Virus record (IMG/VR): IMGVR_UViG_3300031566_000314
Location: 1 to 26,140 of that record
Direction: 5' to 3' (one strand)
From: a virus
Length of the DNA stretch: 26,140 nt
Position numbers and translations under genes: made by a program. Under the pieces are notes generated by a model. The model was given only the letters and a program-made list of their open reading frames with translations. It did not search any database and was not told the origin of the DNA. The first letter of the stretch is position 1. Every line of letters begins with the position of its first letter. Shown here piece after piece: positions 2,794 through 15,860 of the stretch.

Positions 2794-2804
2794 AGGTCGG
2801 AGTT

Positions 2805-2821
2805 CCCGTGTCTTCAACGGG
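2805..2821 (+). other. Short hairpin between 2793 and 2852
   Basis: CCCGT (2805-2809) and ACGGG (2817-2821) form a five-base GC-rich stem with a seven-base loop. No run of T follows, so it is not an intrinsic terminator. It might protect or separate mRNA segments. The preceding TAAAGGTCG is repeated at 6564-6572, in another leader. Confidence 0.3.
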
Positions 2822-2851
2822 TTATAAAAAGAAGTAAAAAACTCAAACAAA

Positions 2852-3445
2852 ATGAACAAAGATATTAAATTAAAAAGAGAAGAGGCAAAGAAAAATAAAT
2901 TAAATGAGAAAGATATTTATCCACCTGACTATATGGAGGAACCAGACCCCAGATATGCTACAAAAGATGATATTGGCACGATAGTGAACGCAATCACAGG
3001 TATTGCTAAAACTGTTAATGATTTAGTAGAGAAACAAGCAAATCCAATTATCACAACGACTGATTCTGGTCTACCTGGCACGGCTGATTTAAGAAAGATT
3101 AAAGAATCTACCAAAATAGAAACAATTCCCAAATCTCCTAAACCAACAGAAGAGGAAATAGCAGGAGGGATAGAGAAAATACCAGTGCCGCCACAATGGA
3201 GAAAAATGGTGGATGAATTGCTGGGTATGGATTTCGGAATTGATGTGGTATATCCACAATCAGGGTCGGGATTTCTTTTCAAGATTATCGTTCCCACAGA
3301 AAAATCCAATATGAGTAGGGATTATAAGGAATTTTACAAAGTTGATATTAGGACAAAAGCTATCAACTATAACGAAGGTGTTGACGGAATAAGGAAATTC
3401 TGTGAAGGAGTTAAAAAGAATCTTGAAAGAAAGGCGGAGAATTAA
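2852..3445 (+). CDS. Hypothetical protein, 197 aa, probable minor virion protein
   Basis: A 197-residue protein in three parts: a charged Lys/Glu N-terminus (to about 30), a helical then Pro/Thr-rich linker (about 38-105), and a more compact C-terminal part (about 110-190) starting VPPQWRKMVDELLGMDFGID and containing beta-like segments. The C-terminal part looks like the conserved, folded domain. No enzyme motif, membrane helix or signal peptide is visible. There is no Shine-Dalgarno sequence; the ATG follows an A-rich leader (CAAACAAAATG). Function unknown. Its place in the head gene region suggests, by inference only, a head or packaging accessory role. Confidence 0.65.
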   Translation: MNKDIKLKREEAKKNKLNEKDIYPPDYMEEPDPRYATKDDIGTIVNAITGIAKTVNDLVEKQANPIITTTDSGLPGTADLRKIKESTKIETIPKSPKPTEEEIAGGIEKIPVPPQWRKMVDELLGMDFGIDVVYPQSGSGFLFKIIVPTEKSNMSRDYKEFYKVDIRTKAINYNEGVDGIRKFCEGVKKNLERKAEN

Positions 3446-3476: not shown

Positions 3477-3944
3477 ATGCCAGAGAAAAACAAAGCACAA
3501 CAAAAGATAGTGGCAACAGCAGAACACAACTTCAAACAACCATTCAACTGGCTATATTACACTAACATGAAACTATTACTAAACATTTCAGAACGGCTCT
3601 ATGCCCTTGCTTTATTGAATCAATTTAAGGGCAATATAGAAACGATGGTTGATATATTGGAAGATGTAAAGGGATTCAAAATATCCGATGATGATTGGGT
3701 AAAAGCAGAAAAACAAGTGGTTCCCACCACAGACAAAGACGGAAACCCAGCTTCTTCTTGGCAATGGAATGACGAGAAAGGAGGCGACAAAGAGATTGAA
3801 ATAGCTAAATCGACAAAAGATTACTTAACAGCAAAGATTAAGGAACTCAACGATAAGGGAGAACTCACATTTCAAGACCGAGCGGTTATAACACTTTCGG
3901 GGAAATTATTAGAAGGAAGCGAAATAAGCAAAAAGGAGAAGTAA
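3477..3944 (+). CDS. Hypothetical protein, 155 aa, before the scaffold leader
   Basis: 155 residues. The first half is helical with aromatic residues (FNWLYYTNMKLLLNISERLY), and the second half is charged (EKGGDKEIEIAKSTKDYL...). No membrane segment or catalytic motif is visible, and no family is recognised. The leader holds TTAAAAGGTA (3449-3458), a motif repeated before other genes, then an AT-rich stretch directly before the ATG. It is the last gene before the structured leader and terminator at 3963-4071, so it probably ends a transcription unit. Confidence 0.6.
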   Translation: MPEKNKAQQKIVATAEHNFKQPFNWLYYTNMKLLLNISERLYALALLNQFKGNIETMVDILEDVKGFKISDDDWVKAEKQVVPTTDKDGNPASSWQWNDEKGGDKEIEIAKSTKDYLTAKIKELNDKGELTFQDRAVITLSGKLLEGSEISKKEK

Positions 3945-3962
3945 TTTAACAATTTAACCAAT

Positions 3963-4057
3963 AGGTATCAACTATTTGGAGAGCTGATTTTCTCCTTGAC
4001 GAGTTTGGATACCTTCTTGTTGAGGAGAAACTCGGCTTTCTGAATAGAGAGCCGAGT
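3963..4057 (+). promoter_or_regulatory. Structured leader with alternative pairings (putative attenuator)
   Basis: Three structures can be drawn. Hairpin B pairs 3989-4003 with 4016-4030: fifteen consecutive pairs, three of them G-U, with a 12-base loop. Its loop holds GATACCT (4008-4014), complementary to AGGTATC (3963-3969), so the upstream strand could form a pseudoknot with it. Hairpin P2 pairs GGAGAG (3978-3983) with TTCTCC (3990-3995) and competes with hairpin B for the same strand. CGAGTTT (4000-4006) can also pair with AAACTCG (4028-4034), which would break the base of the terminator stem that follows. Mutually exclusive stems next to a terminator are the layout of attenuators and riboswitches. 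No known class is recognised. The pairings are seen; the regulatory role is inferred. Confidence 0.5.
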
Positions 4058-4071
4058 CTTTGTTATTCTTT
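4030..4071 (+). terminator. Intrinsic terminator upstream of the scaffold gene
   Basis: ACTCGGCTTTCT (4030-4041) pairs with AGAGAGCCGAGT (4046-4057): twelve pairs, one of them T-G, around a GAAT tetraloop, with a GC-rich base. The following 14 bases (4058-4071) contain ten T. This is the best terminator in the window. It would stop or reduce transcription coming from the portal region before the highly expressed capsid genes. Confidence 0.75.
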
Positions 4072-4088
4072 AGCAAAGTAAAAATAAT
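4060..4088 (+). promoter_or_regulatory. Possible promoter for the capsid gene cluster
   Basis: TTGTTA (4060-4065; four of six), 17-base spacer, AATAAT (4083-4088; five of six). The expected start is near 4095, about ten bases before the ATG at 4105. It overlaps the T-rich tail of the terminator, so old transcripts would end and a new one would begin here. The elements are only moderate in an AT-rich background. Confidence 0.35.
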
Positions 4089-4104
4089 TAAAGTAAAAAA
4101 AACT

Positions 4105-5043
4105 ATGGCTGAAGAAAAAAAGGAAGTAAATACAGATGTTGAAAAGATTGAGTTAGAACCTTCTGAGTCCGAAGAGGGTGAAGAAGTAATAACAAAACCC
4201 GAAGACATCGAGGGAGAAGGAACTCCATCGGAATCTTCCACCGAGGAAAAACCAAGCGAAACCGAAGAGGATAAAGAAGAACCACCAATAGAGGGTAAAG
4301 GTGAAAAACTTATTACCCACGAGGAATCTTCTGAATCCGAAGAAGACAAGGGTTTCGTTGAGCCGTCAGGCGAGGATTCTGAAGACGAAATCAAGCGTCT
4401 TCCTGATGAAACGCCTCGTGAATATGCTCTTCGCTTAGAGGTCACTCGTTTGAAGCGAGGTAATCGTGAAAAACGAGCCAAAGATTTATTGGGTGATACA
4501 AAACCAGAAAAACTTCCAGAAATTACCATAGCCCAATTTAACGAATTGACTGATGATGAAAAAGAATTACTCGGTCAATATGACGCTGGTGAATTAAGCA
4601 CATTTGAGAAAATCTTAGATGCGTTGGCTAAAAAACACGGGTGGGTCAAAAGGGAGGAACTTAATTCCACACGCAATAGAGATTCCAGTAATGATATTCT
4701 TGATACCTTTTTACAAGGGCATCCCGAGTATTTACCAGAAAACGATAAAGGCAATGTGTTGTGGGAAAGATTTAAATCAGAATTCCGACTCTACAAAACA
4801 CCCGAAAATCCACGAAATTTGAAAAGAATCTTTAATAAGATTCATAAGGATATTTTCGGAGTAGAATCTGGCGGGGAACTCAAAAAAATAGATGCCAAGA
4901 AAGAGAAATTGAAAGTCGTATCTCATTCTGGCGGTTCGACTATAAGAGGTCAGTCTTCATCCGAAGGAGATCGCTTGACTCCAGACCAAAAAGCTCATCT
5001 TAAAGGATTCTCTGATAAGGACTTTGAGGAATTGGAGTTATAA
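4105..5043 (+). CDS. Scaffold-like acidic protein, 312 aa
   Basis: I place the start at the ATG at 4105 (MAEEKKEVNTDVEKIELEPS). A TTG at 4060 extends the frame but would lie in the terminator tail. The first 100 residues are extremely acidic and Ser/Glu-rich, followed by a basic segment (TRLKRGNREKRAKDLLG), a helical middle and a Lys-rich C-terminus ending in SDKDFEELEL. Scaffolding proteins guide capsid assembly and then leave or are cleaved. They are typically acidic, helical, poorly conserved, and encoded just before the coat gene, all of which fits here. The call rests on composition and position between portal and capsid, not on a sequence motif. No protease motif is visible. It is preceded by a structured leader and terminator, unlike most genes here. 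Confidence 0.65.
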   Translation: MAEEKKEVNTDVEKIELEPSESEEGEEVITKPEDIEGEGTPSESSTEEKPSETEEDKEEPPIEGKGEKLITHEESSESEEDKGFVEPSGEDSEDEIKRLPDETPREYALRLEVTRLKRGNREKRAKDLLGDTKPEKLPEITIAQFNELTDDEKELLGQYDAGELSTFEKILDALAKKHGWVKREELNSTRNRDSSNDILDTFLQGHPEYLPENDKGNVLWERFKSEFRLYKTPENPRNLKRIFNKIHKDIFGVESGGELKKIDAKKEKLKVVSHSGGSTIRGQSSSEGDRLTPDQKAHLKGFSDKDFEELEL

Positions 5044-15308: not shown

Positions 15309-15860
15309 ATGTTTCCAAAAGGATTTCATCCCAAAACAGAATTTAAAAAAGGACAAGTATCTTTGGTTAAGGGAAAACATTGGAAAATTAAAGATAATTC
15401 CAAAAGAAAAGGTCATCATCCTAAATCAGAATTCAAGAAAGGAATACCCGCTTGGAATAAAGGAATAAAGAAAAGAATTAATACTGGAAGAACACATTTT
15501 AAAAAAGGAATGATTCCTTGGAATAAAGGAAAGAAAAATACATTTAAACATACCGATGAAGCTAAAAGGAAAATCAGTGAATCAGAAAGTGGTGAAAAAC
15601 ATTATAATTGGCAAGGAGGAATAGCGAATGAACCATATTCAGTTGATTGGACTAAAACTCTTAAAAGAGCAATTAAGGAGAGAGATAAATTTACCTGTCG
15701 GATTTGCGAAGAACAAGATGATTTAGTTATTCACCATATAGATTACGATAAGAAAAATTGTAATTCAGACAATTTAATAACTCTATGTAGAAAATGCCAC
15801 ACAAGGACAAATACCCATCGTGATTATTGGACTAATTATTTTCAAAATAAACTAAAATGA
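15309..15860 (+). CDS. HNH homing endonuclease, free-standing, 183 aa
   Basis: 183 residues with a complete HNH nuclease at the C-terminus: CRIC (130-133) and CRKCH (160-164) are the zinc-binding pairs, and HHIDYD (142-147) with Asn155 forms the catalytic core. The N-terminus is basic and repeats the motif FKKGxxxWNKG (about 42-52 and 64-74, with a degenerate copy at 12-22). HTDEAKRKISESESGEKHYN (81-100) matches the NUMOD3 DNA-binding motif found in mobile nucleases. Such enzymes nick or cut target DNA to spread their own gene. It sits cleanly between two virion genes, four bases after one stop and with an ATGA overlap into the next. It is more Lys- and A-rich than its neighbours, consistent with transfer. 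No intron boundaries are apparent. Confidence 0.9.
   Translation: MFPKGFHPKTEFKKGQVSLVKGKHWKIKDNSKRKGHHPKSEFKKGIPAWNKGIKKRINTGRTHFKKGMIPWNKGKKNTFKHTDEAKRKISESESGEKHYNWQGGIANEPYSVDWTKTLKRAIKERDKFTCRICEEQDDLVIHHIDYDKKNCNSDNLITLCRKCHTRTNTHRDYWTNYFQNKLK

What the first reader, a model, noticed from the sequence alone, without database searches (positions are those of the whole stretch)
3957..4071. Switch-like RNA structure ending in a terminator before the scaffold gene
Three overlapping helices can be drawn by hand: a 15-pair hairpin (3989-4003 with 4016-4030), a competing GGAGAG/TTCTCC hairpin (3978-3995), and a loop-upstream pairing (3963-3969 with 4008-4014) that would make a pseudoknot. A 12-pair terminator follows, and its 5' strand can instead pair with 4000-4006. 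Such exclusive pairings are typical of attenuators, riboswitches and protein-binding leaders. Being placed between the orphan block and the capsid genes, it could set capsid protein levels. I do not recognise any known class.
Basis: partly seen in the sequence, partly recalled or inferred. Interest (0 to 1): 0.65.

Follow-up and report, generated by a model that had tools for sequence, protein, structure and literature searches.

The report
Two-pseudoknot leader before phage scaffold gene
Just before the head-scaffold gene of an uncultured phage family lies a conserved, shape-shifting RNA leader: a terminator controlled by alternative pairings, followed by a small knotted RNA that hugs the start of the gene and recurs before one other gene, which looks like a new RNA control system for phage head building.

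Summary
In the window, 3972-4047 forms a 31-pair hairpin (z -9.9; 0/200 shuffles), twice the reported stem. The loop-upstream pairing (A:A', 3963-3969 with 4008-4014) and the terminator (4030-4057) are real, but the terminator's true competitor is 3972-3987, not 4000-4006. In about 20 divergent relatives the same parts recur in the same order with different sequence: A:A' is own-best in 25/25 leaders; strands B, B' and B'' (antiterminator and terminator sharing B') co-vary (permutation 0/10000). A abuts B while A' lies 24-37 pairs away, so A:A' and B:B' should exclude each other: a two-fold attenuator. It is conserved family-wide with strong covariation and precedes one other window gene, 2852-3445. 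A covariance model gives 85 hits in 525 kb: 48 before scaffold genes, 33 before 2852 homologues. No Rfam family matches. Best reading: a cis-regulatory leader with transcription attenuation plus a translational operator, tuning scaffold and 2852 protein levels. No function was measured; effector and host are unknown.

The parts
3945..3955 (+). boxA-like TTTAACAATTT at the start of the leader, directly after the stop of gene 3477-3944
   Evidence: Motif at 8/10 or better in 13/36 leaders vs 31/359 other after-stop stretches; a lead only
3963..3969 (+). Strand A (AGGTATC), pairs with A' in the apical loop
   Evidence: A:A' own-best in 25/25 leaders, own mean -12.2 vs swapped -2.4 kcal/mol
3972..3987 (+). 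Strand B, 5' strand of the antiterminator base helix
   Evidence: MFE pairing with 4032-4047; B:B' own -15.9 vs swapped -8.0, permutation 0/10000
3989..4003 (+). Strand C of the upper stem
   Evidence: 15 pairs with 4016-4030
4008..4014 (+). Strand A' (GATACCT) in the apical loop
4016..4030 (+). Strand C' of the upper stem
4032..4047 (+). Strand B', shared by antiterminator (with B) and terminator (with B'')
4030..4057 (+). Terminator hairpin 4030-4041/4046-4057 (B':B''), U-rich tail from 4058
   Evidence: 12 pairs, -19.2 kcal/mol alone; counterpart written for 20 relatives
4058..4063 (+). S1 5' strand of the start-codon pseudoknot (also the first part of the terminator's U-rich tail)
4068..4072 (+). 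S2 5' strand (CUUUA)
   Evidence: own loop complementary to own S2' in 62/68 elements vs 32.0 +/- 2.6 with shuffled partners
4073..4078 (+). S1 3' strand
   Evidence: S1 99.6% paired, 4 of 5 pairs with double changes, 55 elements
4089..4093 (+). S2 3' strand (UAAAG) followed by UAAAAAA, 11 nt before the ATG
   Evidence: covariance-model hit 4058-4099, E 2e-4; this sequence was in the training set
4105..5043 (+). Scaffold-like gene: acidic disordered N-terminus, all-helical rest
   Evidence: AlphaFold model; lies between portal and major capsid genes
2805..2834 (+). Second copy of the pseudoknot: S1 2805-2809/2817-2821, S2 2812-2815/2831-2834
   Evidence: the same element precedes the homologous gene in many relatives
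2852..3445 (+). Gene of unknown function carrying the same pseudoknot; C-terminal alpha-beta domain (residues 107-197)

Best explanation
A cis-regulatory leader with two layers. Layer 1 (transcription): RNA polymerase coming from the upstream head genes makes the leader, which can take two exclusive folds. Fold R: B pairs B' under the C:C' stem, B'' is left free, no terminator forms and the polymerase reads through into the scaffold/capsid genes. Fold T: A pairs with the apical loop A' (pseudoknot on C:C'), B is held as a loop, B' is free to pair B'' and transcription stops. Layer 2 (translation): an H-type pseudoknot whose 3' strand ends 11 nt before the scaffold ATG, followed by A-rich GUAAAA sequence, acts as a translational operator. 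The same operator sits on gene 2852, so one trans-acting factor, probably a phage protein (2852 itself or the scaffold), would repress both when in excess. Shown: anatomy, conservation, covariation, repetition before the two genes. Inferred: termination, exclusivity in vivo, repression and the identity of the factor.
For: Fold z -9.9. A:A', B:B' and B':B'' recur in order A-B-A'-B'-B'' in 20 leaders, with strand-swap permutations of 0/10000 for B:B' and B':B'' (21 leaders) and A:A' own-best in 25/25. In most leaders A ends 0-6 nt before B while 24-37 pairs lie between B and A', so A:A' and B:B' should not coexist. The two folds are close in energy, and leaders that favour R more have stronger A:A' (Spearman 0.54, p 0.014, 20 leaders). 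Start pseudoknot: 45/50 scaffold leaders at -10 kcal/mol or better, shuffle means mostly -1 to -5; covariation score 0.636 vs 0.216 shuffled and at most 0.274 slid. Model R1 over 525 kb: 81 of 85 hits before the scaffold or the 2852 homologue. In an independent pattern scan of viral contigs, the clear pseudoknots directly before an ATG lay in contigs of this phage family. T4 gene 32 has a comparable operator, a ~28-nt pseudoknot plus UUAAA/UAAA repeats (PMC535899).
Against: No RNA, termination or protein-binding data. The window's U-tract is weak (CUUUGUUAUU). A terminator was not found in several relatives (L010, L019, L026, L028, L043, L067, L072, L079), so attenuation is not universal. Many 2852 homologues (41/98 loci by a strict descriptor, some of them fragments or repeats) lack a detected pseudoknot. 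The 2852 domain resembles ribosome-associated HPF/YfiA only weakly (Z 5-6). Strands A, A', B, B', B'' were picked by hand as complementary, so pairing within a leader is by construction; the swap test shows only that the pairing is specific to each leader, and related leaders are not independent.
Confidence: 0.6

Rival explanations
1. RNase III processing site: the 24-37-pair hairpin is cut to separate the upstream mRNA from the capsid mRNA and to set its 5' end; the start-codon pseudoknot then shields the new 5' end.
For: The long intergenic duplex is the most widely kept part; simple-hairpin relatives without a terminator exist (L043, L072, L079).
Against: Does not predict a third strand B'' that repeats B and is followed by U, nor A:A' kept in 25 leaders.
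Confidence: 0.2
2. Riboswitch: a small metabolite stabilises the A:A'/C:C' pseudoknot and a second ligand site exists in the start pseudoknot.
For: Pseudoknot plus terminator and RBS-proximal pseudoknot resemble riboswitch designs; the A-rich loop resembles preQ1-I.
Against: The sequences of A, A', C and the loops differ between leaders, where a ligand pocket would be kept; no Rfam riboswitch matched; the controlled genes look structural, not metabolic.
Confidence: 0.07
3. boxA/NusB-dependent antitermination controls the terminator, the hairpin being a passive spacer.
For: TTTAACAATT enriched at leader starts, 13/36 vs 31/359.
Against: Only about a third of the leaders have it; it does not explain exclusive pairings.
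Confidence: 0.08
4. The start pseudoknot is a constitutive translation enhancer or mRNA stabiliser, not a regulated operator.
For: Present before only two or three genes per genome, possibly ones needed in large amounts; A-rich start region in a phage whose other genes show little Shine-Dalgarno signal by eye.
Against: Not before the major capsid gene, which needs the most protein; the S2 3' strand lies where a ribosome-binding site would.
Confidence: 0.2

Closest known systems
T4/RB69 gene 32 translational operator (PMC535899)
   Same: H-type pseudoknot of roughly 30 nt in a phage leader followed by UAAA-type repeats and the start codon; diverged sequence with kept structure
   Different: There an unstructured component of more than 40 nt lies between pseudoknot and coding start; here S2 mostly ends within about 25 nt of the ATG. 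Gene 32 encodes an ssDNA-binding protein; here a scaffold-like protein and a protein of unknown function. Two genes carry the element here.
Pseudoknot-controlled transcription attenuators and riboswitches (from general knowledge)
   Same: Shared strand between an upstream helix and a terminator; pseudoknot in one state
   Different: No conserved ligand pocket seen; A:A' excludes the antiterminator by geometry; followed by a second, RBS-proximal pseudoknot
P22 scaffolding-protein autoregulation (Wyckoff & Casjens 1985, cited as ref 45 in PMC5744158; details from my own knowledge)
   Same: A scaffold gene whose own product limits its synthesis
   Different: No RNA element is known to me for P22; different phage, host and sequence; autoregulation is not shown here
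preQ1-I riboswitch
   Same: Small H-type pseudoknot with A-rich loop near a ribosome-binding site
   Different: No Rfam match at relaxed threshold; different conserved bases

Membership tests
Intrinsic-terminator attenuator | Terminator hairpin with U-rich tail before the gene | tested here: met
   4030-4057, 12 pairs, weak U-tract; counterparts in relatives
Intrinsic-terminator attenuator | Upstream strand that competes for the terminator's 5' strand, kept by covariation | tested here: met
   B:B' and B':B'' swap tests, permutation 0/10000
Intrinsic-terminator attenuator | Effector-dependent change of termination | not testable with these tools
   needs in vitro transcription
T4 gene 32-type operator | H-type pseudoknot upstream of the start codon | tested here: met
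T4 gene 32-type operator | UAAA repeats in the segment before the start codon | tested here: met
   GUAAAA after S1 and after S2 in most of 55 elements
T4 gene 32-type operator | More than 40 nt of less structured sequence 3' to the pseudoknot, including the ribosome-binding site | tested here: not met
   S2 ends within about 25 nt of the ATG in nearly all assigned elements, 11 nt in the window scaffold leader
T4 gene 32-type operator | Binding and repression by the gene's own product | not testable with these tools
   no binding data
preQ1-I riboswitch | Match to the Rfam model | tested here: not met
   absent at E up to 10 in the window and up to 5 in two relatives
boxA antitermination element | boxA sequence at leader start | tested here: inconclusive
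   13/36 vs 31/359 at 8/10 matches
RNase III processing site | Cleavage within a long duplex | not testable with these tools
   a long duplex is present; cleavage needs 5'-end data or enzyme
HPF/YfiA fold for protein 2852 domain | Structural similarity to HPF | tested here: inconclusive
   top rows Z 5.0-6.1, rmsd 2.6-3.4 over 71-77 residues, within the range of common arrangements

The most novel reading that the evidence does not exclude
A new phage RNA regulon: protein 2852 binds the start-codon pseudoknot on its own and the scaffold mRNA, while an exclusive-fold attenuator upstream gates transcription of the capsid genes, so that head-protein ratios are set by RNA at two levels.
Probability: 0.25. 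Interest if true: 0.85.

Novelty: new variant of a known kind. Interest (0 to 1): 0.68.

Why it matters
The element matches nothing in Rfam 15 and its phage family has no match in the annotated phage collection searched. It offers a concrete, testable RNA site for control of scaffold level, a question known from P22 since the 1980s, and it shows two pseudoknot mechanisms stacked in about 150 bases. The same operator on two genes makes the search for a trans-acting regulator direct.

Tried and rejected
Rfam at gathering score (window and 14 loci) and relaxed (three leaders): no cis-regulatory match near its cut-off. The competing GGAGAG/TTCTCC hairpin: nothing in the relatives was seen to support it. 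A conserved ligand pocket: sequences of A, C and loops differ freely. Protein families: no PHROGs match; Pfam only for the capsid protein and an M23 peptidase among the genes tested. Foldseek for protein 2852: no hit below E 0.4 in PDB and none below 0.001 in BFVD. Host: no capsid-protein relative in genome contigs, one portal relative in an unnamed 0.7 Mb bin in which no 16S gene was found. Automatic pseudoknot assignment failed for the L002 and L003 scaffold leaders, but the covariance model finds both. A scripted terminator search missed the window and L003, which were then written by hand. Two scripts stopped with errors part-way; their missing parts were redone. Literature search found no paper on such an element; open-licence PMC texts only.

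Full report
Check of the observation. The window is a viral contig of 26,140 bases. Region 3970-4050 folds into a near-continuous hairpin: 16 pairs (3972-3987/4032-4047), one mismatch, 15 pairs (3989-4003/4016-4030) and a 12-base loop, -42.7 kcal/mol, z -9.9, 0/200 shuffles. The competitor of the terminator's 5' strand is the 5' base of the long hairpin, because 3976-3987 and the terminator's 3' strand are near repeats. Nothing in Rfam matches at the gathering score, and relaxed matches are far below their cut-offs.

Relatives. The major capsid protein finds 31, then 73 loci in viral contigs, down to about 43% identity; the two sets overlap. Gene order portal - small genes - 2852 homologue - scaffold - small protein - capsid is largely kept. 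The family has no match in 50,697 phage records and only one portal relative in bacterial genome contigs, on a small contig of an uncultured 0.7 Mb bin; the host is unknown.

Leader anatomy in relatives. Reading the stretch before the scaffold gene shows the same plan in different letters: A, B, C, loop with A', C', B', then B'' and a U-rich run. B/B'/B'' triples could be written for 21 leaders including the window, all checked to occur in the sequence. Swapping strands between leaders destroys the fit: B:B' -15.9 own vs -8.0 swapped, B':B'' -14.6 vs -7.6, both 0/10000 permutations; A:A' -12.2 own vs -2.4 swapped, own-best in 25/25. A:A' beats shuffled upstream sequence at 3/300 or better in 16/21 leaders, though not in the window itself (51/300). 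These strands were chosen by hand, so the swap tests show leader-specific pairing, not an unbiased discovery rate.

Geometry. A ends 0-6 nt before B in most leaders (one overlap of 1 nt; 8-15 nt in L005, L069, L093), while 24-37 pairs lie between B and A'. Thirty A-form pairs are about 80 angstroms; six nucleotides cannot span that. Hence A:A' and complete B:B' should be alternatives. With A:A' the terminator strand B' is free (fold T); with B:B' it is not (fold R). Without A:A', fold R is favoured by 0-10 kcal/mol in most; adding A:A' brings the two close, and the two quantities correlate (Spearman 0.54, p 0.014; Pearson 0.44, p 0.053; 20 related leaders). Which fold wins in the cell, and what tips it, is not shown. 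Candidates: the ribosome ending at the upstream stop (9-23 nt lie between that stop and A in all but one of the 20 leaders with an assigned A:A'), NusB/S10 at the boxA-like motif, or a phage protein.

Start-codon pseudoknot. Directly downstream, 4058-4093 forms S1 (CUUUGU/GCAAAG) and S2 (CUUUA/UAAAG). Scanning 50 scaffold leaders, 45 have such a pseudoknot at -10 kcal/mol or better with S2 6-17 nt before the ATG, while shuffles reach the observed value rarely in most leaders (window 2/200). Among 415 other gene starts 92 also pass, and many of the strongest of these precede the homologue of 2852. In an alignment of 55 elements, S1 is paired in 99.6% of cells with double changes at 4 of 5 pairs; the whole has covariation score 0.636 vs 0.216 shuffled and 0.27 or less when slid. 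For S2, the loop fits its own 3' partner in 62/68 cases against 32.0 +/- 2.6, at most 41, with partners shuffled. A covariance model with S1 only, over 58 loci and both strands, gives 85 hits: 48 before scaffold, 33 before 2852 homologues, two before another small gene upstream of the scaffold (L036, L180), one beside a listed hit in L208 and one inside the L068 scaffold gene; many hits are training sequences. Within the window the only hits are 2805 and 4058.

Limits. The strict descriptor finds the pseudoknot before 57 of 98 loci with the 2852 homologue and 81 of 108 with scaffold; loci overlap, several are cut or repeated, and some 2852 homologues do lack it. A terminator was not found in a number of relatives, which keep a plain hairpin or A:A'.

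Proteins. The scaffold assignment rests on position, acidic disordered N-terminus and an otherwise helical model. Protein 2852 has a confident C-terminal alpha-beta domain (pLDDT about 95); a second-look alignment puts several HPF/YfiA chains first at Z 5-6, too weak for a claim; some homologues carry a zinc-finger-like N-terminus (L019, L028, L070). It is a candidate regulator only.

Comparison. The downstream element works like the T4 gene 32 operator (pseudoknot plus UAAA repeats, PMC535899) but fails its spacing feature, so it is not filed as a member. The upstream element meets the sequence criteria of an attenuator. P22 scaffold autoregulation (cited in PMC5744158) is the closest biological precedent.

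Noticed in passing
L018 875-1059; also L019-L025, L028-L030: The major capsid gene is interrupted at several different positions in relatives; L018 carries a group I intron (Rfam RF00028, E 8e-10).
   Followed up: partly
L012, L013: In-frame TGA aligns with invariant or nearly invariant tryptophans of the capsid protein in L013, suggesting TGA=Trp in that phage or host; L012 is a close relative.
   Followed up: partly
window 2795-2844: Around the 2852 pseudoknot an extra outer helix (GAGTT 2800-2804 / AACTC 2840-2844) and an upstream GGTCG motif recur in several relatives.
   Followed up: partly
L074, L081 (also weaker in L087): Leaders without a detected terminator have a promoter-like TTGACT-17-GATAAT directly upstream.
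   Followed up: no
L074, L081, L087, L098 scaffold leaders: A short hairpin appears to be inserted in the A-rich loop of the pseudoknot, leaving S1 and S2 intact when read by eye.
   Followed up: no
window 4105-4135 and relatives: A further GAAGTAAA copy lies at the start of the scaffold coding sequence (KEVN/EVK) in many relatives.
   Followed up: no
window 15309-15860: Open reading frame with an HNH-like CxxC..HH..CxxCH pattern; probably a homing endonuclease.
   Followed up: no
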